A model generated the notes under the pieces. That model made no database searches and was not told where the DNA came from. It saw nothing but the letters and a program-made list of their open reading frames with translations. The position numbers and the translations under genes were made by a program. A DNA stretch of 26,464 nt from a virus. Where the stretch lies: positions 1-26,464 of IMG/VR virus record IMGVR_UViG_3300032050_008276; one strand, 5' to 3'. Below are positions 3,700 through 25,808 of this stretch, in pieces. Numbering within the stretch: the first letter of the stretch is position 1; each line of letters begins with the position of its first letter.

Positions 3700-4326
3700 A
3701 TGTCGAAGTCGGAAGTCATCGAGTACGGCGGCACTCGTTTTCGCAGGTACCCAGAGTCTCAGGACGCGTCTCTGAGGAACTACTTCCGCCCGCCGATTCA
3801 CATCGCGATGCGTGGCGTTGAATCGCTCCATCGCGAGATCTGGAAGGCCGAGCGTGGGCCAATCCCTCCCGGGTGGCACGTTCACCACATCGACGGGAAC
3901 CCGCTCAACAACAGCCTCGACAACTTGGAGTGCCTCCCGGAAGCCGAGCACCTGTCGCACCACGGCAACCAAGAGTGCAGTGCTCGCAAGCGCGAGCACC
4001 TCGACAGCATCAGGCACTTGGCTGCGGCGTGGCACTCCTCGCCAGAGGGCATTGCGTGGCACAAAGAGCACGGCCGCTCAACGTGGGAGACCCACGAGGC
4101 GGAGCAGAGAACGTGTGAGTTGTGCGGTGTGCTGTATCTGACGAAGGCACGCCAGACCGTTAAGTTCTGCTCCAACAACTGCAGGTCCAATGCGCGCAGG
4201 CGGTCCGGCGTCGATGACGTCGACCGCGAGTGTCGCCGCTGCAAGAAGACCTTCCGCGTCAACCAATACAGCGTGAAGACGTTCTGCGGTCGTCTCTGCG
4301 CGGCGCGCCATCGCGTCGGCAAGTGA
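3700..4326 (+). CDS. HNH homing endonuclease with two zinc-ribbon motifs
   Basis: A 208-residue free-standing homing endonuclease. Residues 43-89 form an HNH domain of the phage type: LHREIWKAERGPIPPGWHV, then HHIDGNPLNN (H62, H63, D65, N67), DNLECL (N75) and EHLSHHG (H84, H88). The C-terminal half has two cysteine clusters with identical spacing, C139-x2-C142-x14-C157-x3-C161 and C178-x2-C181-x14-C196-x3-C200, probably zinc-binding DNA recognition units. It lies between terL and portal, genes otherwise joined directly, with a 43-base AT-richer leader and only a weak Shine-Dalgarno. A 60-base line here (3721-3780) is 60% GC against 72% in portal (4741-4800), consistent with lateral arrival. 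It probably cuts terminase genes lacking the insert. Confidence 0.9.
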   Translation: MSKSEVIEYGGTRFRRYPESQDASLRNYFRPPIHIAMRGVESLHREIWKAERGPIPPGWHVHHIDGNPLNNSLDNLECLPEAEHLSHHGNQECSARKREHLDSIRHLAAAWHSSPEGIAWHKEHGRSTWETHEAEQRTCELCGVLYLTKARQTVKFCSNNCRSNARRRSGVDDVDRECRRCKKTFRVNQYSVKTFCGRLCAARHRVGK

Positions 4327-13340: not shown

Positions 13341-13765
13341 TACTGTTTCGTCGGGCGATGGAGTCATCGCCGTGCGGATGCGAGCAGGCCGAGGATGCGC
13401 AGACGGCGAGGCCGGGTGAGCGCGAGGCGTTGCTCGAGCGCGCGCCAGCGTCGCAGGAGCGTTGGCGCTGTCCGCGTGGTGGGTGCGAGCCGGGACCGCT
13501 GAGCGACGAGGCAGAGCAGGCAGCGCGCGCCGTCGAGGTGCTGACAGGCTGCGAGCGTGGGGCTTTCAAAACGTGCCCGCGCCACGAGGCGAGCGCGCCT
13601 GACGTGTTGCGAGCGCTGCGGATCTACCGCGCGACGCAGGGCGGTGGGCTCTCGTACGACGACGACCCGCCCGCGGTGATCGTGCACGCTGCCGAGGTCA
13701 TCGGCGGGGCCGATGCCGCGCGCATGGACCGCGAACAAAAAGAGCGAGAGAACGAGCGTGGCTGA
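13316..13765 (+). CDS. Tail assembly chaperone frameshift extension (T domain)
   Basis: The -1 frame is open across the end of the G-like gene and to 13765. Slippage at 13316 would yield a 309-residue G-T fusion: 160 residues of the zero frame plus 149 of this frame. The extension starts RAAAWLNSLLFRRAMESS and has a cysteine-rich middle (CGC, WRCPRGGC, GCERGAFKTCPRHE) and a C-terminal helix. An internal ATG at 13358 has no Shine-Dalgarno, so independent translation is unlikely. It overlaps the tape measure start by 8 bases. The T part of such fusions recruits the tube protein. Confidence 0.75.
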   Translation, partial: RAAAWLNSLLFRRAMESSPCGCEQAEDAQTARPGEREALLERAPASQERWRCPRGGCEPGPLSDEAEQAARAVEVLTGCERGAFKTCPRHEASAPDVLRALRIYRATQGGGLSYDDDPPAVIVHAAEVIGGADAARMDREQKERENERG

Positions 13766-15866
13766 CCAGATCAAGATCGAGATCGACGCAGACACGCGCA
13801 AGGCGATTGCCGAACTCGCGAAGCTCAACAAGGCGACTGAGAGCGTCGAGAAAGAGGTCAAGAAACTCACGCTCGCGCAGGCCGCGTGGAAGGCCGCGAA
13901 CACCGACCTCGGCAAGATCACGAAGGGGTGGCAAGAGGCGGCCGAGGTCTACGCGAAAGTTGGGCTCGCGTTCGCTGGCGTGACCGCGGCGGGCGTTGCG
14001 TTCGCCGCGCACATCGACGAGCAGAACCGCGCGATTGCGCGACTCGGCCCCGCGTATCACGCGGTGACCGCCGCGACGAACGGGGTCATCACCGCGCAGC
14101 AGGCGCTCACCCTTCAGGGGCAGATTCAGGCCGCGGGCGTTCAGGTCAACGAGCGCGCGATGGCGGCGCTCACGCGACAGGCGCGTGAGTGGGCCGACGC
14201 GACCGGCGACGACGCCTCACAGGCGATCGAGAAGCTCACGAACGCGGTCGTCAACAACAGCGAAGACGCGCTCAGCGAGATGAACCTCGCAATGGCGCGC
14301 GGCACCACGAGCGCACAGACGCTCGCCAACATGGTGCGAGAGCTCGAAGCGAGGTTCGCCGGCGCAGCCCCTCCCGCGCGCACACTGACGCAGGACTTGG
14401 AGAAGCTCCCGCAGGCCCTCGAAGCGATCGGCGCAGCCGCGCTGCAGACGTCGCAAGGCCCGCTCGAGACTCTGTTCACCGGGCTCATGCGCATCGGCGG
14501 GGCGCTTGCGGGCGTCAACGTCGAGGGGATGAACTTCAGACGCACGCTCTCGGAGCTCGCGAACGCGGGCGACGATGCGCGCGCGCTCGCGTCGGGGCAG
14601 GCTGACGTGCGCACGCGCGAGGGGCGGCGTCAGTCGCGCGACAGGATCATCGCCACGCTGCAGCGACGCGGGATGCGCGTTGACCTGTCGTCGGCGGGCG
14701 GACTCCAAGGGCTGAGCGAGTCGGAGCTCACGCAACTCGCGAGCGCAGCCGAGTCGGCGCGGTCGCAAGAGAACCTCGACTCGTTCGTCTCGGGCATCGG
14801 CTCGCAGCGAACGCAGGATCGCGCAGCGGCAGAGCGCCGCGCTGGCACGACGAACAACCGCTCGATGTCCGCGATGGAGGCGGCGGTCGAGCGCAAGATC
14901 CGCAAGCCGGGCGGCTCGACGTCGGACCCTGCGCTGCGCACTGCACGCGACGCGTACAACGCCGCCGTGGCCGAGGGCATGGCCCGCGAGGCTGTACTCG
15001 TGTTGCCGGACGATATGCCCCGCAACCGGGGCGAGACCCTCGTCGCCTACTTCAATCGGCTTGCTGGAATCCAGAGCGAGTTCAACTCGGCTGGTGCAGT
15101 CAACGACCTCGCGCCGACCAACGTCGCGGAGCTCGAAAACGATCGAGCGAAGGGCGAGGCCGCATTCGCGGAGGACCGAGCGGGCACGACGCGAGAGCGC
15201 GAGCAGACCCAGCGACGAGCGGCGCGCGATCGAGAGACGCGGCGCGGCGCGCGTGCGGGCTCGATCGGTGGTCGCACGATGAGCGCGCTCGGGTTCGCGA
15301 TGGACGACGAGGGCAGAAGCGCCTCGTTCGACTCGATGGCCGAGGGGGCGACGCTCCTCACTGGCACCGTGAACGCCCTGACGAGCGGGTTGACGACCCT
15401 GTTCGACACCCTCGTCACCGGCAGCATGGACGCGGGGACGGCGTTCCAGACGTTCGCGTCGGGGCTCCTCACCGAGCTCGGCAAGATGGCCGTGCAAAAG
15501 GGGCTCTTCTACACCTTCGAGGGCATCGCCGCGCTCTTCACCGCGCCTCCCGCGGCACCGTTGTACTTCGCCGCAGGCGCGGGGTTGCTCGCGCTCGGGG
15601 CGGGGCTCGGGTTCGCGGGCGCTGCGAGCAAACCAGCGACGCCGGCACAGGGCGCAGGGCTCGGGGCGGGCGGCACACAGAGCGCGCGCGGACTCGCTCC
15701 ACGCTCGCTCATGGCGGGCTCATCGGGCTCGCTCGGGAACATCACCATCGTCAACTCGTCGTTGGTCCCGTCGGGGCCTGTCGACGCACAGCGCGCGCGT
15801 GACGGGCTGCGCACCGTGCGGCGTCAGGGGTTCGGCGACCGCGCGCCGCGAAGGATCGAGCACTGA
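13758..15866 (+). CDS. Tape measure protein
   Basis: A 702-residue protein that sets tail length; at the commonly used 0.15 nm per residue it predicts a tail of roughly 105 nm. It begins with a coiled coil (residues ~10-45, RKAIAELAKLNKATESVEKE), then a hydrophobic segment (~68-84, VGLAFAGVTAAGVAFAA), long Ala/Glu/Arg-rich helices and a second hydrophobic Gly/Ala segment near 592-625, as in siphovirus tape measures. GTG at 13758 (VADQIKIEIDADT) is preferred over ATG at 13713 because it gives the usual N-terminus and minimal overlap. The segment near 340-470 is very Arg/Glu-rich and probably less structured. Confidence 0.9.
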   Translation: MADQIKIEIDADTRKAIAELAKLNKATESVEKEVKKLTLAQAAWKAANTDLGKITKGWQEAAEVYAKVGLAFAGVTAAGVAFAAHIDEQNRAIARLGPAYHAVTAATNGVITAQQALTLQGQIQAAGVQVNERAMAALTRQAREWADATGDDASQAIEKLTNAVVNNSEDALSEMNLAMARGTTSAQTLANMVRELEARFAGAAPPARTLTQDLEKLPQALEAIGAAALQTSQGPLETLFTGLMRIGGALAGVNVEGMNFRRTLSELANAGDDARALASGQADVRTREGRRQSRDRIIATLQRRGMRVDLSSAGGLQGLSESELTQLASAAESARSQENLDSFVSGIGSQRTQDRAAAERRAGTTNNRSMSAMEAAVERKIRKPGGSTSDPALRTARDAYNAAVAEGMAREAVLVLPDDMPRNRGETLVAYFNRLAGIQSEFNSAGAVNDLAPTNVAELENDRAKGEAAFAEDRAGTTREREQTQRRAARDRETRRGARAGSIGGRTMSALGFAMDDEGRSASFDSMAEGATLLTGTVNALTSGLTTLFDTLVTGSMDAGTAFQTFASGLLTELGKMAVQKGLFYTFEGIAALFTAPPAAPLYFAAGAGLLALGAGLGFAGAASKPATPAQGAGLGAGGTQSARGLAPRSLMAGSSGSLGNITIVNSSLVPSGPVDAQRARDGLRTVRRQGFGDRAPRRIEH

Positions 15867-16750
15867 TGGCGCAACTTCCGAGACACGCGCTCGCGCGCAC
15901 CTACGCGCCGTCGAGCAACATCGCCGCGGTCGTGAGCGACGACGGGGGCGCGGCGCGCGCTGTGACCGTCGCCGCCTCGGGCACCTACGTTCGCCCGTAC
16001 CTCTGCGCTGCGGGCGGTGGTGGCACGGCCTCGTCGGACCCGTTCGAGTTGTTCGCGCGCGCGTCGTCGCAGCTCACGACGGGCGCAGGCGGTGGGACGT
16101 GGGCCGTCACGCTCAACAGCGACGGGCGAACGCGCATCACTTGGACCGGCGTCGGGACGGGCGAGATCACCTCGGGCGACATCCTGTCTGCGCTCGGCTT
16201 TGCAGCGGGCACGGGGGCGCTTGCATCGGGGGCGTCGGCGCTCTCGACGTACCCCGCTCTCGGGCTCCTCCTGTGGGCGTACAGCGAGGGCGACACGGGT
16301 TGGCTTCCCGAGCAGGACAGCGCGGGCTCGGTCGACGGGCGAGGGCGCGTGTACTTGTTCCGCTCGTCGTACGTCCGCTGGACGCGGACCGCGACGGCGA
16401 TGTGGGTGCCCCGCTCGTGGGCCAACAACTACGCGGGGGAGTACCTCTCGCCTGCGTGGCACCCCGACACCGCAGGCGGTGGCTCAACGTCCTCGGCGGC
16501 GCAGAGCCCAAGCGATCCCGCCGAGCCCACCGCGTGGGCTGACGCAATCTTCACCCTGAGCGGGCACGTCCCGTTTGGGTACACCGACGACCTGCAAGCG
16601 GCGACGACAGGGGAGTTCATCTCCACGGTCTCGCTCGCGCCCGAGATGCTCGAGCCCGGTCGCTTCACGCTCCCTGAGCGCGCGCCCACGTACAGCGCGC
16701 GGCGCAGCGTGGCGGTGTCCCTGATCCGCTACGCCACGGAGGAGCTGTGA
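15866..16750 (+). CDS. Distal tail protein candidate
   Basis: A 294-residue beta-rich protein directly after the tape measure, with stop and start overlapping as TGATG. The middle contains RTRITWTGVGTGEITSGDI and LLLWAYSEGDTGWLP, which look like the strand-rich core of a tail-tip adapter. A Ser/Gly/Pro-rich linker (GGGSTSSAAQSPSDPAEP) separates a C-terminal domain beginning WADAIFTLSGHVPFGYTDD. In siphoviruses this slot holds the distal tail protein that joins tube to hub. No diagnostic motif is visible. Confidence 0.6.
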   Translation: MAQLPRHALARTYAPSSNIAAVVSDDGGAARAVTVAASGTYVRPYLCAAGGGGTASSDPFELFARASSQLTTGAGGGTWAVTLNSDGRTRITWTGVGTGEITSGDILSALGFAAGTGALASGASALSTYPALGLLLWAYSEGDTGWLPEQDSAGSVDGRGRVYLFRSSYVRWTRTATAMWVPRSWANNYAGEYLSPAWHPDTAGGGSTSSAAQSPSDPAEPTAWADAIFTLSGHVPFGYTDDLQAATTGEFISTVSLAPEMLEPGRFTLPERAPTYSARRSVAVSLIRYATEEL

Positions 16751-19368
16751 GCGACTACGCGTTGGTCATCGAGGGCTCCCCGCTCGTGTTCGGCACCGCG
16801 GGCGTGACCTCCATCACGAGCTACACGGACGCCGTGCCCACCGGCGCGACGCTCGCACGGATCCTCGGACCCGTCGAGGGCACGCTCACAGAGCGACTGC
16901 GCCCGCTCGACGGCGACTGCGAGATCAGTGCGCTGGACTTCGTGCTGCACGACTCGGACGGCGAGATCACCTCGTGGTTCACCCGCTCGATGGAATCGAC
17001 GTCGCTCGCGTACCTGACGGCGAGCGTGACCGCAGCGGCGTCTACCGCGACGGTCAACAGCGCGGCTGCGCTCGGCACCCTCCCGCGTGACGTGTGGGTT
17101 GCGGACGAATGTTGGTCCGTCACGTCGATCGCAGCCGGCAACACGGTCAACGTGACGCGCGCGCGGTACGGCTCGCCGCAAGGCGTGATCGAGGTCAACG
17201 CCGACCGCGCTGAGCTCCCCGAACTCTTCTCGTACCCGTGCTGGATGCGCGGGCGTCGGGCGAAGCTGTACCGCGTGACGGGCACGAGCGCGTCCCTCAT
17301 GTGGGTCGGGTACGTCTCGCACGGCCCCGCCCTCGCGGAGAACGGGGCGAGCTACACCGTCTCGTGCGTTTCGTCGTGGGAGCAAGAGTCCCGCGCGACG
17401 TGGGGCAGCCCGCAGCCCGCAGCGACTCTCAGCGGGTACGACGCGAGCGCGATCATCTTCACAGTATGGAATGACTCGCGCTCGATTCAGGTGAGCTCCG
17501 CGTTCGCGGACTACCGCGCGCATGTGTTCCGCACCCGGCAAGCGGCGGTGAATGCGTCGCTCGAGCGGCTCGCCGCACAACTCACCGCCGCAGGTGCCTC
17601 CGGCGTCATCGCGGACGCGCGCGACACAGGGACAGACCTGTTCGTCACGGTGCAGTTCCAGACCGTGAGCAAGGGCGCTGCGTCGCTGCTCATCGGCGGC
17701 GAGGCGTACGAAGCCACGTCCACGGATTCGAGCGGGTACGTCGAACACATTTGGCGTGTCCCGCTCACGGACGGCGGCGCGATCGTGCGCGCTGGGTTCG
17801 CGCTCGGGTCGGACCAGCGAGCTACCACCGTCACGCCGCACGCCGGCGCATCGGGCTCCGCGTGGGCGACCATCGCGGGCTCGCGCACCGGGACACGGCT
17901 GACGCCGGTGCTGACCGCGGACCTCGGGGACGACTCGTTCCTCGAGCTCGATCCGTCGAGCCAGGCTGATCCCGGCTTCGAGTTCAACGACGCCACGTTC
18001 ACGACCCTCGGCAACGACACGCTCGCGGGCGTGACCACGTTCCACGGGTTCGCTCGCGTGGTCTCGCGCGATCCGACGGTGCGACCCGTCGCGGAGGATC
18101 GCTACTCGACCGCGCGCCGCGGGCTCCCAATCCTCGAGGCTCTGCCGCTTCGAAGCGAACTGCGCGTCACCTCGGAGCACTGGCTCGAAGCGCTGCGCTC
18201 AATCGTCGAGGACACGACCTATGCGACCGCGGGCAGCGACTCGCGCAACTGGGGGTGGAGCGGATACGCCGCGACCCTGCGCCGCTCGCGCGATGACCTT
18301 GGCGTCGTCGAGTACCGCACGGGCGGCAACGTCACCGTGGGCGAGTTCATCACCGGCGAGGCGAAGTTGCGCGGGTGCTGCGTCGGCGTCGACGCGAACG
18401 GCAAACTCACGATCGTCGACATTCGCGCGCCTTCGCCCGCGGAAACGCCCGCGGCAACCATCACCCTCGCGGACCTGCTGAGGGGATCGCGCGCGGGGTA
18501 CGCACCCTCGGAGGACGGGCTCGTCACCGAGGTCGTTTTCGAAACGCCGTTGCGGACGTTCACGCTGCGCGATGCGGTTGCGCTCGGGCGGTACCGAACT
18601 CAGCGCGCGATCACCGTCACGTCGCAGTCGACGCGGCAAGATCCACGGCTCACGGCGGATCCGATCGGGTACGCCATGCTCGCGTGCGGCAAGCTCCTCG
18701 GGCGCTGGCGCAACGAGTTGTGGTTGCACTCGCTGCAGGTCGTGGCGTCGCAGTTCGCCTCGACGTGCACGCTCGGCGCAGTGGTCTCGTTCGAATCGTT
18801 CTCGACGCCGGATCGTGCGGGCGCTCGCGGGTTCACGGGGGCGAGCGCGCGGCGCGGCGTGGTCATTGGACGCGTGCAGGATCTCGCCACGGGCTCGCTG
18901 ACCCTCGATGTGCTGGAGCTCCCCTACGCGTACGGGTTCGCCCCGTGCGCGCGGGTCGCCTCGATCTCGGGCAAGACGCTGACCCTCGCGAGCGCGTACG
19001 CGGGCGATGCCGGGGACTACGCAGGCTCGGGGCTCACGGGCTACGCCAAGACCGCCAACGACAAGGGGGCGGGGTGGTTCGCGGCGGGCGACAAAGTGCA
19101 ACTCGTGCTGAGAAACACGGCCAGCTACACCGTCGAGTCGTACACCGTCGCGAGCGTCAACACCGTCGCGGGTACGATCGAGCTCACGGCCAACGTCGCG
19201 ACGGTCCCCACCGACTGGCCCGCGCTCGCAGGCGGCGATCAGCCCGTCGATGTGATCTTCGACGGGTGGTCTACGGCGCTCTCGTCGCAGCGGGTGTTCG
19301 CGGCTGTCGGGGACGAGACGACGCGGCAGATTGCGAGCACGTCCAGCAACCTGCGGTGGTCAGCGTGA
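16747..19368 (+). CDS. Large tail-tip/hub protein
   Basis: The largest protein in the window, 873 residues, third after the tape measure, where tail-tip or baseplate hub proteins are expected. The N-terminus has a strand-rich hub-like domain (EGTLTERLRPLDGDCEISALD). Residues ~91-143 form the Thr/Ala/Val beta insertion seen in the tube and connector (SVTAAASTATVNSAAALG, DECWSVTSIAAGNTVNVTRA). The middle (residues ~450-650) includes HWLEALRSIVEDTTY and GNVTVGEFITGEAKLRG, and a second similar beta unit lies near the C-terminus. GTG start overlaps the previous stop (GTGA). The 3' end overlaps the antisense lipoprotein gene by 9 bases. Confidence 0.75.
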   Translation: MSDYALVIEGSPLVFGTAGVTSITSYTDAVPTGATLARILGPVEGTLTERLRPLDGDCEISALDFVLHDSDGEITSWFTRSMESTSLAYLTASVTAAASTATVNSAAALGTLPRDVWVADECWSVTSIAAGNTVNVTRARYGSPQGVIEVNADRAELPELFSYPCWMRGRRAKLYRVTGTSASLMWVGYVSHGPALAENGASYTVSCVSSWEQESRATWGSPQPAATLSGYDASAIIFTVWNDSRSIQVSSAFADYRAHVFRTRQAAVNASLERLAAQLTAAGASGVIADARDTGTDLFVTVQFQTVSKGAASLLIGGEAYEATSTDSSGYVEHIWRVPLTDGGAIVRAGFALGSDQRATTVTPHAGASGSAWATIAGSRTGTRLTPVLTADLGDDSFLELDPSSQADPGFEFNDATFTTLGNDTLAGVTTFHGFARVVSRDPTVRPVAEDRYSTARRGLPILEALPLRSELRVTSEHWLEALRSIVEDTTYATAGSDSRNWGWSGYAATLRRSRDDLGVVEYRTGGNVTVGEFITGEAKLRGCCVGVDANGKLTIVDIRAPSPAETPAATITLADLLRGSRAGYAPSEDGLVTEVVFETPLRTFTLRDAVALGRYRTQRAITVTSQSTRQDPRLTADPIGYAMLACGKLLGRWRNELWLHSLQVVASQFASTCTLGAVVSFESFSTPDRAGARGFTGASARRGVVIGRVQDLATGSLTLDVLELPYAYGFAPCARVASISGKTLTLASAYAGDAGDYAGSGLTGYAKTANDKGAGWFAAGDKVQLVLRNTASYTVESYTVASVNTVAGTIELTANVATVPTDWPALAGGDQPVDVIFDGWSTALSSQRVFAAVGDETTRQIASTSSNLRWSA

Positions 19369-19785
19369 GCGCTCGAGCACGACGCCGGGACGCGTGCGGC
19401 TGCGGCTGACGAGCGTCTCTCCGACCTGCTCGTATGGACCTGGCACCACGAGGTCGAAGAACGAGCACAGGTTGACCGTGTTCGTCCCGCTCCCCTCGCA
19501 TGATCGCACCTCGTGGACGCACTCGATGGAGACCACGATCTGTCCGACCGCGTTGGTGAACCACCGCCCGGTCTGCTCGTGGGTGTAGCGCTCGGGGCAC
19601 ACCGTCACGCCGCCACGCTCGATGGTCCCCACGGCGATGCCGCCGGGCTGGAGGTCGAGCCTGATCGCGTCGGCCGACCCGCTCCCCAGGCGCGGTGCAC
19701 GCAACACCCACTCGCCGGACGGATTGGCGCAGCCCCCAAGAGCGAGGGCGACGAGGGTGGCAGCGAGGCGCGAACGCATGGTCAT
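19360..19785 (-). CDS. Antisense lipoprotein, moron-like
   Basis: A 141-residue protein on the minus strand in an otherwise plus-strand tail operon. It begins with a classic lipoprotein signal peptide: MTMRSRLAATLVALAL then GGC, with lipobox LGGC and Cys19 as the acylation site; Ala at +2 would allow outer-membrane sorting. The mature part has four further cysteines (TVCPERY, SIECVHEVRSC, NLCSFF), possibly two disulfides. ATG at 19785 is chosen; longer in-frame starts would bury the signal peptide. It has its own candidate promoter. Phage genes of this layout are often morons expressed from a prophage; phage lipoproteins are known to block adsorption or DNA entry of related phages, but no such role is shown here. 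Confidence 0.8.
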   Translation of the reverse strand: MTMRSRLAATLVALALGGCANPSGEWVLRAPRLGSGSADAIRLDLQPGGIAVGTIERGGVTVCPERYTHEQTGRWFTNAVGQIVVSIECVHEVRSCEGSGTNTVNLCSFFDLVVPGPYEQVGETLVSRSRTRPGVVLERSR

Positions 19786-19792
19786 GCGGTCC

Positions 19793-19820
19793 AGCGTACG
19801 AACGGGGTCTGATTCGTCAA
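19793..19820 (-). promoter_or_regulatory. Candidate promoter for the antisense lipoprotein gene
   Basis: Read on the minus strand, TTGACG (19820-19815) matches 5 of 6 bases of a -35, followed after 16 bases by TACGCT (19798-19793), a 3 of 6 -10. Only seven bases separate it from the ATG, so transcription would start at or beside the start codon, giving a leaderless or nearly leaderless message. The weak -10 keeps this tentative. Confidence 0.4.
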
Positions 19821-19834
19821 CGGCTGTACGGCCG
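19821..19834. promoter_or_regulatory. Palindrome adjoining the lipoprotein promoter (possible operator)
   Basis: CGGCTGTACGGCCG is an imperfect 14-base inverted repeat centred on GTAC, with one mismatched pair (CGGC-T/G-GTAC frame). It abuts the -35 element of the antisense gene, a position where a repressor or activator dimer would act. It is also 28 bases upstream of the GTG at 19862 on the plus strand. No other copy was noticed in the window. Confidence 0.35.
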
Positions 19835-19861
19835 ACCAGTGTTTGACAGGACGGTGAGAGC

Positions 19862-20524
19862 GTGACTCTGACGGGCGAACGGCTGACCTCGACGACGCGC
19901 AGGCTGCGCACGCCGACCGCGAGCGAGTGGCGCAACGGGCGCTTCATGGACGCGGGGCTCGGGATGATTCTCTCGAGCAACTTCGCGCACCTTCAGCGCG
20001 AGAGCGTGCGGCACCTCGTGACCGCGCTCGGACCGGGGGTCATCACCAACGCCACGCGCGGGTACTCCTACTCGGGCACGCCGTTGAAAGATCGACCGGA
20101 CCCCGGCACGTACACGGGACTCGGCGCGATCTCGTGGGACACGGCCACCGCGACGAGACTCGGACCGTTCACGCTGATCGCGGACCGCGAGATCACCGCA
20201 GAGGATCCCTCGTGGCGACAGGTGCGGGTCAACGTCGACGCATCGAGCGTCAACCTCGTGCTGTACGCCGCGCTCACCGCGGGCGATCCGCCGGGCCCGG
20301 ATCACCTTGGATTCGCCACGGCGAACGCCACGGCGGGGCGCGCGGTCAACGCCCTCACGCTGACGCCATCCCGCAGCATCCGGCCCGAGAGGATGCCCGC
20401 TCGACGCCCTGACGCGAGCACGGACGAGAGCGCGCAGGTCGCGACCGTCTACCTCTGGGTGGGCTGGTACGCCGCGAGCGGGACGAACGCAGTCATCACG
20501 ATCAACGCGGACGAGGTGCGCTGA
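19862..20524 (+). CDS. Hypothetical distal tail/fibre protein, 220 aa
   Basis: First plus-strand gene after the lipoprotein; GTG start with GGTGAGAG upstream. Residues ~30-60 form a helix (LGMILSSNFAHLQRESVRHL) and the rest is beta-rich (RQVRVNVDASSVNLVLYAALT, VATVYLWVGWYAASGTNAV). Its ending resembles that of the next protein in style, with a strand-turn-strand and terminal acidic residues. It ends in a TGATG overlap with the following gene. Probably a virion surface protein near the tail tip; no family recognised. Confidence 0.6.
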   Translation: MTLTGERLTSTTRRLRTPTASEWRNGRFMDAGLGMILSSNFAHLQRESVRHLVTALGPGVITNATRGYSYSGTPLKDRPDPGTYTGLGAISWDTATATRLGPFTLIADREITAEDPSWRQVRVNVDASSVNLVLYAALTAGDPPGPDHLGFATANATAGRAVNALTLTPSRSIRPERMPARRPDASTDESAQVATVYLWVGWYAASGTNAVITINADEVR

Positions 20525-21657
20525 TGCCGTCGTTGGTCCCGCACACCTCGCAGCCGCAAGAGCTCGCCGCGCACCTCGTCAGCGACCCCGTATCCGCAAC
20601 GTCTGTCGGTCGGGTGTGGGCGACACAGGCGGCGTTTCTCCTCGGGCGCGCGCTGCATCACGTCGCCTCGATCCGCTATCACGCCATCACCCGCACGAGC
20701 ACGGCGATCGACGTTCCGTTGCAGTGGCGGCCCTCGCCTGGCTGTCGCCTCGCGCTGCTGACGGTCGACCTCGGCGCGGCCCTCGCGGTCAACATCACAG
20801 GCAGGTACATCTCCGGCGCGACGCACTCCACGCTCGCGGTGACGGTGCCCGCCGGCGCAGGGGTGATCACCCTCGACGGGCGCGCGTTCGACGGAACCGC
20901 GGCGATGCCAGAGCAGGACGTGCTCCGCGTCGCGCGCGCCTCGTACGCGTGCCTGATCCACCTCGGCGCAGCGGGTGACGTGGCGGACCAGATCCACGAC
21001 ATCACCGTGACCGTCGACGATGTGAGCACCCAGCAGCACGCGGGGCTCGCGCAGATCACGTTGACGGAGCTGCCGCTCGCCACGCTGGTCCCTGAGTCTG
21101 GCGAGGTCGGGGTGCACCTGCCCTCGATCGACCCACGGAACGAGCTCCACGACGGCGACTCTTCGACAGGAACGGGCGTGCCCGAGATCCTCACCGCGGA
21201 GCAAGACGCGGCGGTCAAGATCCGCGAGCACGTGCAGGTCGGGACGTACGAAGACACGGGGCTCGCGTGGACGCGCTCGAGCGCGGTCGTCGGCGCGCTC
21301 AACTGGGTCGGCACGTTCGGCACGTCGTACGACCCGACGTTTCGAGTCAGGGTGCGCGCGCCGCACGGGAACACGACGGGACTGTCTGCCGCGTTCACGC
21401 TGCGCGTGCGGTACTACTCGACCGCGCAGGGGACGTTTCGCGTGGTGAAAAGCCCGGTCGGGCTCGGCGTGAGCGCGAACCACGACTTCGTGATCGCGAG
21501 CGGGGGAGGAGCTTGGACCGCGAGCGCGGACACGACGATCACCCTGCGCACCGATGGGACAGACCAGGAGATCGACCTGCAATTTCACGCGGCGACTGAC
21601 GACGGCTCGGCGCTGTACGTCTCCTCGATCGCGCTCATCCAGACGGAGACAGCATGA
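20524..21657 (+). CDS. Tail fibre-like structural protein, 377 aa
   Basis: A 377-residue protein coupled to the previous gene. The N-terminal region (residues 1-60) has a helix with HHVASIRYHAITRTS, followed by a series of beta domains (CRLALLTVDLGAALAVNITG; THSTLAVTVPAGAGVITLD). The C-terminal half contains FRVRVRAPHGNTTGLSAAF and QEIDLQFHAATDDGSALYV, typical of jelly-roll or galactose-binding-like modules on tail spikes and fibres. There is no enzyme motif. A role in host attachment is inferred from location and fold character. Confidence 0.6.
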   Translation: MPSLVPHTSQPQELAAHLVSDPVSATSVGRVWATQAAFLLGRALHHVASIRYHAITRTSTAIDVPLQWRPSPGCRLALLTVDLGAALAVNITGRYISGATHSTLAVTVPAGAGVITLDGRAFDGTAAMPEQDVLRVARASYACLIHLGAAGDVADQIHDITVTVDDVSTQQHAGLAQITLTELPLATLVPESGEVGVHLPSIDPRNELHDGDSSTGTGVPEILTAEQDAAVKIREHVQVGTYEDTGLAWTRSSAVVGALNWVGTFGTSYDPTFRVRVRAPHGNTTGLSAAFTLRVRYYSTAQGTFRVVKSPVGLGVSANHDFVIASGGGAWTASADTTITLRTDGTDQEIDLQFHAATDDGSALYVSSIALIQTETA

Positions 21658-22373
21658 CCGGTCGCAGCAGAGCACGGGACAGATCGAGACCGAGCGGGGG
21701 ATCGCCACCGTGGACGCCTGCGCGTCTGTCGTCGCTCGCGTTTTGGTACCGCGCAGACCTCGGAATCACGCTCTCGGGCGGATCGAGCGTGAGCGCGTGG
21801 GCGGACCAGAGCGGCAACGGGCGACACGTCACGCAAGGCACTGGCGCAGCGCAGCCCACGCTCACGACGAACGCGACGCTCGGCGGGCGCAGCGTGCTCT
21901 CGTTCGATGGCGGTGATCGCCTTGTGTCGAGCGCATTCGATCTGAGCAACACGCTCTCGCTCTTCTTCGTGCTCGGGTCGGTCACGTCACGCGGCATGAT
22001 CGCGGAGCACGGTCTCGGTACGCACTGGTACGCGTATTCGACAGGAAACGCCGCGGTGTTCTTCTTGTCGCACAACACGACGCAGAGCCCCGTGACGACG
22101 TGGGCGCAGGCAAATCAACAGGGCGCGGTGATCTACGACCGCAGCGCCGCGCCGGTGATCCGCGGCAACCGCGCCGTGCTCACGCCGACTGCGACGTCAG
22201 GCAGCCCGCCTGTCGCGGGCAACGTCAACGCTGCGCTCGCGATCGGCGCGCGCACTGACGGATCGCTCCCGCACAACGGGCAGATCGCCGAAGTGATCGG
22301 ATACAACCGCGCGGTCGACGCTGCGGAAATCGCGCTCGTTGAGGCGTACCTCCTTCGCAGATACGGAGTGTGA
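21654..22373 (+). CDS. LamG/concanavalin-like domain protein
   Basis: A 239-residue protein starting in an ATGA overlap. After a disordered Arg/Ser/Pro N-terminus (~27 residues), it shows the LamG-like jelly-roll signature: FWYRADLGITLSGGSSVSAW, ADQSGNGRHVTQ, SVLSFDGGDRLV and finally IAEVIGYNRAVDAAEIALVE, AYLLRRYG. These modules bind carbohydrate or surface structures and are common in phage tail-associated proteins. Catalytic residues are not evident, so binding rather than cleavage is likely. It sits in the distal tail cluster and may be an adhesin. Confidence 0.8.
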   Translation: MTGRSRARDRSRPSGGSPPWTPARLSSLAFWYRADLGITLSGGSSVSAWADQSGNGRHVTQGTGAAQPTLTTNATLGGRSVLSFDGGDRLVSSAFDLSNTLSLFFVLGSVTSRGMIAEHGLGTHWYAYSTGNAAVFFLSHNTTQSPVTTWAQANQQGAVIYDRSAAPVIRGNRAVLTPTATSGSPPVAGNVNAALAIGARTDGSLPHNGQIAEVIGYNRAVDAAEIALVEAYLLRRYGV

Positions 22374-23403: not shown

Positions 23404-24876
23404 GTGGCAGTAGAAATCAAAGACGGCGCAAGCTCCGACAAGCTCGCGATCAACGCGACGGGCGCGGCATCTGTCGCGCTGACGACGGACGACGCTGCGG
23501 CGGGCTTCGTGGCGCTCGTGGCCGAGTCGCATCCGACCGAGAACGGCGTCACGCGCGAGGTGTACGCGCTCGAGTCAAACGACGACTACGCGCTGCGCAC
23601 GACGCAAGAAGAGGTGTTGTTCGCGCACCTCTTCGCGGGCGCTGCGGTCAACACCACGCTGTTTCGTCAGGGCTCTGCAACGGCGACGATCACGCAGACG
23701 GGCGGTTTCTTGACGCTCAACGCGGGACTCTCGACCGCGAGCGGCGCGGCGGCGGTCGTCACGGGCTACCAGATGGCCGAGGTGACCCCGACGAGCAACC
23801 TCTACTGGTCTGGCGCGGGGCAGTTCGGGCAGGCATCGCACCCTGCAAATTGCCTGATGGAGTGGGGCCTCGCGACGCACAACGCGGGACCCGGCACCGG
23901 CACCACCGAGCCCACCGACGGCGCGTATTTCCGGGTGAGCGCCGCGGGCGCGTTCGAGGCTGTGATCCGCTCGGCGGGCGTCGATGTGGCAACCGCGACG
24001 ATCACCGCGGCGTTCGGCACGGTCGTTGGCGGGAACACCACGCGCGAGTTCGTCGTCAGTCTCTCGGACTCGACAGCGCGATTCTGGATCGATGACGCAC
24101 CCGTCGCGAGGATCGACCTTCCGACGAGTGCCGCGGCAGCTCCGGGCTGGACGGTGACGCGCACGCTCGCGCCTCACTTTCGCCTGCACAACACCGGCGT
24201 GACCGGCTCCGCGCAGTCGATGAAATTCTCAGAGGTCGCGATCAAGCGCGACAACGTGGGCGCGCCTCGCCCGCTCGCGCACGCAGTTGCGGCGAGCGGA
24301 CAGATGGCTTCGCAGGGGCAGACGGGCGAGACGTTCGGCACGACCGCGAGCTATGCGAACAGCGCGGACCCCACGGCGGCGGCGGCGCTCAGCAACACGG
24401 TCGTCCTCGTGACCGGGCTCGGTGGACAGGCGCGATTCAACGCTGGCGCAACGTCGACGACGGACGGCATCGTCACGTCGTATCAGGTGCCCGCTGCAAC
24501 GAGCGCGATTCCCGGCAAAGCGCTCTACATCACGGGCGTCAAGATCAGCGCCGCGAACCTCGGCGTGGCGGTCGCGACGACGGCCAGCACCATCGCGTGG
24601 TCGCTGGCGTACGGACACACCGCGGCAGCGCTCAACACCTCGGAAGCGGCGACTACGAAGGCTCCGCGCCGTGTGGCGCTCGGGCTCATGACGTGGCCCG
24701 TCGGCGCGGCGGTCGGACAGATGCCCCAGTGCGGTGACCTCGTGATGCAGTTCGATTCGCCCATCTGCGTTCAGCCCGGCGAGTTCGTGGCGAGCGTCGC
24801 GAAGTTCGTTGTCGGCACCGCGACGGCTTCGCAAGTCATCTGGGCTCACGTCACGTTCGATGGGTACCGCGCGTGA
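23404..24876 (+). CDS. Fibre-like structural protein with jelly-roll domain, 490 aa
   Basis: The GTG at 23404 has GAGGG 11 bases upstream. Residues ~1-30 are a short N-terminal module (MAVEIKDGASSDKLAINATG). Residues ~75-285 resemble a LamG-like jelly roll: TTLFRQGSATATITQTGGFL, YQMAEVTPTSNLYWSG, CLMEWGLATHNAG, TREFVVSLSDSTARFWIDD, and HFRLHNTGVTGSAQSMKFSE. The C-terminal region (~370-490) is another beta domain ending VIWAHVTFDGYRA. Such proteins are commonly annotated as phage structural/tail proteins. It ends in GTGA with the next gene. Confidence 0.7.
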   Translation: MAVEIKDGASSDKLAINATGAASVALTTDDAAAGFVALVAESHPTENGVTREVYALESNDDYALRTTQEEVLFAHLFAGAAVNTTLFRQGSATATITQTGGFLTLNAGLSTASGAAAVVTGYQMAEVTPTSNLYWSGAGQFGQASHPANCLMEWGLATHNAGPGTGTTEPTDGAYFRVSAAGAFEAVIRSAGVDVATATITAAFGTVVGGNTTREFVVSLSDSTARFWIDDAPVARIDLPTSAAAAPGWTVTRTLAPHFRLHNTGVTGSAQSMKFSEVAIKRDNVGAPRPLAHAVAASGQMASQGQTGETFGTTASYANSADPTAAAALSNTVVLVTGLGGQARFNAGATSTTDGIVTSYQVPAATSAIPGKALYITGVKISAANLGVAVATTASTIAWSLAYGHTAAALNTSEAATTKAPRRVALGLMTWPVGAAVGQMPQCGDLVMQFDSPICVQPGEFVASVAKFVVGTATASQVIWAHVTFDGYRA

Positions 24877-25808
24877 GCCTCCTACTCGCGCTGCTGACGA
24901 CCGCGGCGACCCTCACGGGTGACGTTGCGACGCACACGACGACCGCGCTCGACGCGGTTGCTGTGCCCGGCAGCGTGAGCATCGAGGGCGCGCAGGCCAC
25001 CACGACAACGACCGCGCTCGACGCGGTGCTCTCTCCGTCCTCGGTCTCGATCACCGGGGACGTCGCGGCGCACACCACCACGGCGCTCGACGCCACGGCG
25101 GTCCCCTCGCCGGTCACGATCACCGGGGCGCAGGGCTCGAGCACGACGACCGCGCTCGATGCCGCTGCGACGCCCGGCGCTGTCACGCTCACGGGTGCGA
25201 ACGGCACCACAACGACCACGGCGCTCGACGGCGCTGCGGTCCCGCAGCCCGTCACGATCACGGGCGGGGTCGCGTCGCTCACGTCGACGGCGCTCGATGC
25301 GGTCATCGGGTTCCCCGGCCCTGACGCCGACGTCTACGGGCTCACGCTCTCGATCACAGCGCGCGGGCTCGAGGGCGTCACCGTCGCTCGCGGGCTCTCG
25401 CTCTCGCTGCTCTCTCGCTCGCTCGACGGATCGACCGTCGCGCGCGGTCTCTCCCTCTCGATCCCAGTGAGGTCTCTGGTGTCCAGTCAACGCGCGATCA
25501 CCAAGGGCGACAGAGAGAGCGTGACGTTCACGCTCACCGTCGACTCGGGCACGATTGCCTCGCCGTCGTCCGGCGTGCTCAATCTCTACGCTCTCGGATC
25601 CACCACGCTCGTCACGAGCCTGACGTTCACGGTCGACAGCGGGGCGGGCACGAGCTCGCTCGTCGGGCACGTCGACTTCACCGCGGCGAACACGCCGGTC
25701 GCAGCGACGTACGTCGCGCAGGTCGTTCTGACCTACGTCGACGGGACGAAGACGTGGCCCAACTCGACGCCGTGGACGTTCACCATTCGCGCGCCGGGTG
25801 CGACGTGA
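24873..25808 (+). CDS. Repeat-rich structural protein with C-terminal baseplate-type domain
   Basis: A 311-residue protein in three parts. Residues 13-150 are six 23-residue repeats with core TTTALDA and a VP/SP turn (for example THTTTALDAVAVPGSV). Residues 154-207 are three 18-residue repeats (ARGLSLSLLSRSLDGSTV). Residues ~208-311 are a beta domain beginning AITKGDRESVTFTLTVDSG, similar in style to BppU/DUF2479-type N-terminal modules of baseplate proteins. The GTG start overlaps the previous stop. The repeats probably form a stalk or beta-solenoid between virion and the terminal domain. No function is recognised beyond virion structure. Confidence 0.7.
   Translation: MSLLLALLTTAATLTGDVATHTTTALDAVAVPGSVSIEGAQATTTTTALDAVLSPSSVSITGDVAAHTTTALDATAVPSPVTITGAQGSSTTTALDAAATPGAVTLTGANGTTTTTALDGAAVPQPVTITGGVASLTSTALDAVIGFPGPDADVYGLTLSITARGLEGVTVARGLSLSLLSRSLDGSTVARGLSLSIPVRSLVSSQRAITKGDRESVTFTLTVDSGTIASPSSGVLNLYALGSTTLVTSLTFTVDSGAGTSSLVGHVDFTAANTPVAATYVAQVVLTYVDGTKTWPNSTPWTFTIRAPGAT
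24909..25322 (+). repeat. Six in-frame 69-bp tandem repeats
   Basis: Six consecutive 69-base units encode the 23-residue repeats of the structural protein above. The core codons for TALDA (ACC GCG CTC GAC GC-) recur with few changes, while the sequence around them varies. The unit length is a multiple of three, so unit gain or loss keeps the frame. Confidence 0.85.
25332..25493 (+). repeat. Three in-frame 54-bp tandem repeats
   Basis: Three 54-base units encode 18-residue repeats, of which the second and third begin with the same ARGLSLS. They directly follow the 69-bp repeats in the same gene and differ in sequence from them. Confidence 0.75.

What the first reader, a model, noticed from the sequence alone, without database searches (positions are those of the whole stretch)
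19360..19834. Self-regulated antisense lipoprotein moron inside the tail operon
The only convincing minus-strand gene encodes a lipoprotein (LGGC lipobox, four more cysteines) with its own promoter-like sequence and an adjacent palindrome, wedged between a tail-tip gene and fibre genes. Convergent overlap with the upstream gene by nine bases and opposite direction point to cargo expressed independently, probably from a prophage. Known phage lipoproteins act in superinfection exclusion or lysogenic conversion; placement next to host-recognition genes suggests a matched immunity that masks the receptor used by its own fibre. This last point is inference.
Basis: partly seen in the sequence, partly recalled or inferred. 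Interest (0 to 1): 0.75.

Follow-up and report, generated by a model that had tools for sequence, protein, structure and literature searches.

The report
Opposite-strand lipoprotein gene in temperate phage
A temperate phage carries, backwards inside its tail-gene operon, a real gene for a lipid-anchored cell-envelope protein with its own promoter, most likely made by the dormant prophage to alter its host's surface or keep out rival phages; the protein is new, but the arrangement is a known kind.

Summary
The gene is real. ORF 19360-19785 (minus, 141 aa) has the phage's codon signature, which antisense control frames lack, a type II signal peptide with Cys19, four further cysteines, and a 9-nt convergent overlap with the 873-aa tail gene. 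It is identical in a second IMG/VR assembly. That record and a third add the rest of the genome (about 54 kb, circularly joined): a tyrosine integrase, a HTH_3 repressor and a Cro-like gene, so the phage is temperate. Only two lipobox genes exist in 51.5 kb. The promoter claim strengthens: TTGACN-N15-18-TANNNT occurs only twice, upstream of this gene and of the Cro-like gene, both 7-8 nt before an ATG, implying leaderless transcripts. The palindrome is no better than chance and nothing shows self-regulation. No homologue was found in Pfam, NCBIfam, PHROGs, PADLOC, PDB, phage, plasmid, IMG/VR or GTDB scans. Opposite-strand, own-promoter morons in late operons (Tab, lambda bor) and lipoproteins beside tail-tip genes (Llp, Cor, Rtp45) are established. 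Superinfection exclusion by receptor masking is the leading but untested function.

The parts
19360..19785 (-). lipoprotein gene, 141 aa (123 aa mature, about 13.2 kDa), signal peptide 1-18, lipid-anchor Cys19, Ala at +2, four further Cys
19729..19785 (-). type II signal peptide and Cys codon (MTMRSRLAATLVALALGGC); alternative start ATG at 19779
19793..19820 (-). promoter-like site TTGACG-N16-TACGCT; -10 element ends 7 nt before the ATG, so a leaderless transcript is expected
   Evidence: not reported by the stricter scan
19816..19847 (.). imperfect palindrome GTCAA-N22-TTGAC; 22 of 32 complementary, chance level as an inverted repeat
19360..19368 (.). convergent 3' overlap of the lipoprotein gene with ORF 16747-19368
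16747..19368 (+). 873-aa protein, probable tail-tip/hub by position after tape measure (13713-15866) and a 294-aa tail protein
   Evidence: tape measure by PHROG 1.7e-07; the 873-aa protein itself has no match
19862..20524 (+). 220-aa protein, presumed fibre/tip component, divergently placed from the lipoprotein gene
   Evidence: no family match

Best explanation
A moron of a temperate phage. In the lysogen, host RNA polymerase reads the gene from its own sigma-70-like promoter as a leaderless mRNA while the late operon is silent. The protein is exported by Sec, lipidated at Cys19 and anchored in the cell envelope, where a beta-rich, probably disulphide-bonded domain most likely interferes with adsorption or DNA entry of the same or related phages (superinfection exclusion). 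When the late operon is induced, transcription through the gene from the opposite strand would turn it down. Shown here: gene, signal peptide, promoter-like site, temperate genome. Inferred: expression, lipidation, exclusion function and shut-off.
For: Coding signal and identical gene in two assemblies. Lipobox rare by chance. Integrase and repressor. The only two TTGACN-N15-18-TANNNT sites in 51.5 kb precede this gene and the Cro-like HTH gene, both 7-8 nt from an ATG; shuffles give 0.38 sites and 0.08 with a start codon. No strong Shine-Dalgarno upstream (best 3-nt GGA), whereas 45 of 76 predicted genes have 4-5 nt matches. Opposite-strand own-promoter genes in late operons are typical prophage-expressed morons: Tab of JBD26 (PMC10884400), STMMW_20121 (PMC7067206). 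SE lipoproteins sit by tail-tip genes (PMC9586334); lambda lom lies between J and fibre genes, and bor is minus strand.
Against: No homologue anywhere, so nothing ties it to exclusion rather than another envelope function. Known proteins of this kind (phi80 Cor 77 aa, Rtp45 about 6 kDa) are smaller, and no similarity was detected to Cor or Bor. The promoter pattern was framed after seeing the site. No terminator and no deviant G+C (69.5% against 69.4%). No transcript data.
Confidence: 0.42

Rival explanations
1. Lysogenic-conversion lipoprotein with a function unrelated to phage exclusion, as lambda Bor: a surface or periplasmic protein that helps the host cell (stress, predation, ligand binding), kept because it benefits the lysogen.
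For: Same anatomy as lambda bor (minus strand, lipoprotein, near late genes), and lambda lom and bor are expressed in lysogens (PMC7067206). Low-confidence fold is an all-beta protein whose weak matches include avidin and lipocalin-like barrels.
Against: Position directly after the presumed tail tip is the favoured place of SE lipoproteins; no direct evidence of a host benefit.
Confidence: 0.33
2. A phage-cycle protein such as an outer-membrane spanin, lysis modulator or virion component that happens to be encoded on the other strand.
For: Phage lipoproteins are often spanins; the phage has no confidently identified spanin.
Against: Opposite strand to all late genes, about 9 kb from the lysis region, own promoter; no C-terminal transmembrane segment (best mature 19-mer hydropathy 0.9), so not a unimolecular spanin; a second lipobox gene lies in the presumed lysis region.
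Confidence: 0.08
3. A recently picked-up host chromosomal lipoprotein gene without a phage role.
For: Codon score a little below its neighbours (0.276 against 0.43-0.50).
Against: No relative in about 85,000 bacterial and archaeal genomes at the pattern-scan sensitivity or in plasmids; promoter type shared with the phage's own switch; identical in two assemblies.
Confidence: 0.12
4. Spurious antisense frame.
For: High-G+C DNA produces many long antisense frames (166 ORFs of at least 60 aa in the window).
Against: Codon-position signature on the right strand, lipobox, promoter-like site, and no good plus-strand gene in the 493-base space 19369-19861.
Confidence: 0.04

Closest known systems
Tab of Pseudomonas phage JBD26 (PMC10884400)
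   Same: Small gene on the minus strand inside the late operon with its own promoter, expressed from the prophage to block other phages
   Different: Tab lies between the terminase genes and blocks virion assembly; it is not described as a lipoprotein in the passages read; no PADLOC match for our protein
T5 Llp / Cor / Rtp45 superinfection-exclusion lipoproteins (PMC9586334, PMC12685063)
   Same: Lipoprotein encoded next to the receptor-binding or tail-tip gene
   Different: Those are small (Rtp45 about 6 kDa, phi80 Cor 77 aa); phi80 cor is on the same strand as the tail genes; no similarity to Cor and no Pfam or PHROG match
lambda lom and bor
   Same: lom lies between J and the side-fibre genes; bor is a minus-strand lipoprotein moron; both expressed in lysogens
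   Different: lom is plus strand; bor lies after the lysis genes; no similarity to Bor
Ltp of Streptococcus phage TP-J34 (PMC3952083, abstract only)
   Same: Host-surface lipoprotein of a temperate phage that excludes superinfection
   Different: Streptococcal (Gram-positive) host; sequence not compared directly here, but no family-library match
Noncontiguous operons in S. aureus prophages (PMC11087260)
   Same: An antisense gene with its own promoter nested in an operon, giving mutually exclusive lysogenic and lytic expression
   Different: Concerns ith/tha in the cI region, not a lipoprotein in the tail operon

Membership tests
Phage moron (kind, not homology family) | Extra gene with its own promoter, out of register with the operon it sits in | tested here: met
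   Opposite strand in a 30-kb plus-strand late block; promoter-like site
Phage moron (kind, not homology family) | Own terminator | tested here: not met
   Only a 5-bp stem inside the gene at 19480-19466; shuffles give 0.2
Phage moron (kind, not homology family) | Base composition differing from the phage (frequent, not universal) | tested here: not met
   Gene 69.5% G+C against 69.4% for the genome
Phage moron (kind, not homology family) | Carried by a temperate phage and expressed in lysogeny | tested here: inconclusive
   Temperate: integrase and repressor. Expression not testable here
Bacterial lipoprotein (type II signal peptide) | Basic n-region, hydrophobic h-region, lipobox ending in Cys | tested here: met
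   Regular-expression and hydropathy test, (no SignalP available)
Bacterial lipoprotein (type II signal peptide) | Lipidation at Cys19 | not testable with these tools
   Needs palmitate labelling or mass spectrometry
Llp/Cor-type superinfection-exclusion lipoproteins | Sequence homology | tested here: not met
   No Pfam or PHROG match; phi80 Cor comparison E 18. Distant homology not excluded; Llp itself not compared directly
Llp/Cor-type superinfection-exclusion lipoproteins | Located by the tail-tip or receptor-binding gene | tested here: inconclusive
   Directly after an 873-aa gene in the tail region after the tape measure, but that gene has no family match
Llp/Cor-type superinfection-exclusion lipoproteins | Blocks phage receptor | not testable with these tools
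   Host and receptor unknown
Lambda Bor family | Sequence homology | tested here: not met
   No local alignment with E <= 100; no Pfam match
Spanin (unimolecular) | Lipoprotein with C-terminal transmembrane segment | tested here: not met
   No hydrophobic segment in the mature protein

The most novel reading that the evidence does not exclude
An undescribed family of calycin-like beta-barrel lipoproteins, expressed leaderless from the prophage, that masks or jams the very receptor used by the adjacent tail tip, evolved independently of Llp, Cor and Rtp45 in a different group of host bacteria.
Probability: 0.12. Interest if true: 0.55.

Novelty: new member of a known kind. Interest (0 to 1): 0.3.

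Why it matters
Genes read against the late operon from their own promoter are where prophage-expressed defence and conversion functions hide. This one adds an orphan envelope lipoprotein next to presumed host-recognition genes in a phage with no close cultured relatives, and gives a specific testable prediction (leaderless transcript at 19785, exclusion of its own kind). The kind itself is well established, so the interest is modest unless the exclusion mechanism proves independent of the TonB-transporter or LptD routes.

Tried and rejected
Relatives of the lipoprotein: Pfam, PHROGs, NCBIfam, PADLOC, PDB, phages, plasmids, IMG/VR, GTDB genomes: none beyond the same virus. Relatives of the neighbouring tail genes: none except the same virus. 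A panel of about 79 other viral contigs with a gene related to 21654-22373 was scanned for opposite-strand lipoprotein genes nearby: none, and no homologue of the lipoprotein. Host identification through the tRNA-Lys-like attachment sequence inside the integrase gene: a 52-base exact pattern found nothing, probably too long. Operator sharing with the immunity region: TAGAT..ATCTA sites occur only at the Cro-like promoter, not here, and no 9-mer is shared with other gaps. Structure: single-sequence AlphaFold2, mean pLDDT 57.8, all beta; Foldseek matches all above E 0.09 and not used as evidence of family. Palindrome as operator: rejected as chance level.

Full report
The gene. On the minus strand, 19785 to 19360 reads as a 141-codon frame that begins MTMRSRLAATLVALALGGCANPSGEW and carries cysteines at 19, 63, 89, 96 and 107. 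In DNA of 69% G+C long antisense frames are cheap, so the question is whether this one is coding. Its G+C by codon position (0.66, 0.55, 0.87) and its codon log-odds (+0.276 per codon) fall at the low end of the phage's real genes (mostly 0.28-0.69), whereas fifteen long minus-strand frames lying over known plus-strand genes score -0.32 to +0.15 and the rival frames at this place -0.52 to +0.02. A test of every start codon of all 358 stop-free stretches of 90 or more codons in 51.5 kb of this phage leaves only two genes with a lipobox signal peptide; shuffled genomes give 0.275 per genome.

The genome it belongs to. The window is a 26,464-base IMG/VR record. A 49,742-base record, IMGVR_UViG_3300031951_000250, is the same virus: 99.99% identical over the 12.4 kb compared, including the lipoprotein gene. 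It continues the window by 25 kb on the right, and a third record (IMGVR_UViG_3300031787_000724) bridges the remaining 2.5 kb, so the genome closes at about 54.0 kb. Window 157 to about 30.5 kb is one plus-strand late block (terminase, portal, SU10-like capsid, tape measure, tail, presumed fibres, peptidoglycan-binding endolysin candidate) whose only minus-strand gene is the lipoprotein. The left arm, all minus strand, holds a tyrosine integrase over the Pfam cut-off, whose 3' end carries a tRNA-Lys(UUU)-like sequence typical of an attachment site (my reading), and ends in a HTH_3 repressor that faces a Cro-like HTH gene (HTH by reading).

Expression. Upstream of the ATG lies TTGACG-N16-TACGCT. 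The strict scan (9 of 12 matches) does not list it. With the looser form TTGACN-N15-18-TANNNT, common for high-G+C bacteria (own knowledge), the 51.5 kb contain just two sites: this one, and the one in front of the Cro-like gene. Both have an ATG 7-8 nt after the -10 element, so both transcripts should start at or within a few bases of the A of the start codon and be leaderless. Dinucleotide shuffles give 0.38 such sites per genome (two or more in 5 of 100) and 0.08 with the start codon. The pattern was framed after seeing the first site, so these numbers flatter it; that it then picks out the phage's own switch promoter and nothing else is the independent part. The lack of a good Shine-Dalgarno sequence fits. 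The palindrome 19816-19847 is not distinctive: 25 positions in the window match as well, and the repressor's presumed TAGAT-ATCTA operators do not occur here. Nothing suggests that the lipoprotein regulates itself.

Relatives. None: no match in Pfam, PHROGs (best E 0.25), NCBIfam, PADLOC or PDB sequences, none in annotated phages or plasmids, none in IMG/VR beyond the same virus, none in the GTDB genome scan. The last two use exact peptide words and would miss distant relatives. The adjacent tail genes are equally orphan. Only a virion gene at 21654-22373 has many relatives; among about 79 contigs brought in by it, none shows a lipoprotein gene on the opposite strand nearby. A single-sequence model is all beta with pLDDT 57.8; its weak matches include avidin and lipocalin-like barrels and are a lead only.

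What it most likely does. A gene read against the late operon from its own promoter is the classical anatomy of a prophage-expressed moron: Tab of JBD26 is on the minus strand in the late operon with its own promoter (PMC10884400), a Salmonella ST64B gene antisense to the lytic genes has its own promoter (PMC7067206), and lambda bor is a minus-strand lipoprotein. Lipoproteins beside tail-tip genes are the classical anatomy of receptor-directed exclusion: Llp next to pb5 of T5, Cor-type genes directly downstream of gpJ, Rtp45 on LptD (PMC9586334, PMC12685063), and lambda's lom sits between J and the fibre genes. I therefore favour a lysogenic-conversion lipoprotein acting in superinfection exclusion (about 0.42), with a Bor-like host-benefit function next (0.33). 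Transcription of the late operon through the gene would shut it off on induction, by analogy with nested antisense genes in S. aureus prophages (PMC11087260); that step is inference here.

Verdict. It is a new orphan protein in a known kind of place.

Noticed in passing
L006:10298-10552 (minus strand of the record; window coordinates continued to the right: 28431-28685): A second lipoprotein gene of the same phage, 84 aa, cysteine-rich (MIRPSIGRRRRRVLAWLVCALALSGCPMPAPDGC...), with a GGAGG site, shortly before the endolysin candidate.
   Followed up: partly
L005, record position about 6953 downward (minus strand; continued window coordinate 44529 onward): The Cro-like gene has a TTGACG-N17-TACTCT promoter overlapping two TAGAT-ATCTA sites and an ATG 8 nt after the -10 element, so its transcript should be leaderless.
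   Followed up: partly
G001:C1:15947-17221: Tyrosine integrase gene whose 3' end contains a tRNA-Lys(UUU)-like 3' half, a probable attP that could identify the host.
   Followed up: partly
window 24913-25303: Degenerate tandem repeats about 71% alike (period 138 or half of it) in the virion gene 24873-25808, encoding TTTALDA-type repeats.
   Followed up: no
L014, L016, L017, L018: The same phage at 99.9% identity or better in at least five separate metagenome records; L017 bridges the ends and gives a genome of about 54.0 kb.
   Followed up: partly
window 3700-4326: A 208-aa gene between terminase and portal that by eye reads like an HNH homing endonuclease (HHIDGNPLNNSLDNLECLPEAEH), with weaker codon signal than its neighbours.
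   Followed up: no
window 21654-22373: Virion protein (phrog_10356, E 1e-25; Laminin_G_3-like below cut-off) with relatives in over 150 viral contigs, unlike the orphan genes around it.
   Followed up: no
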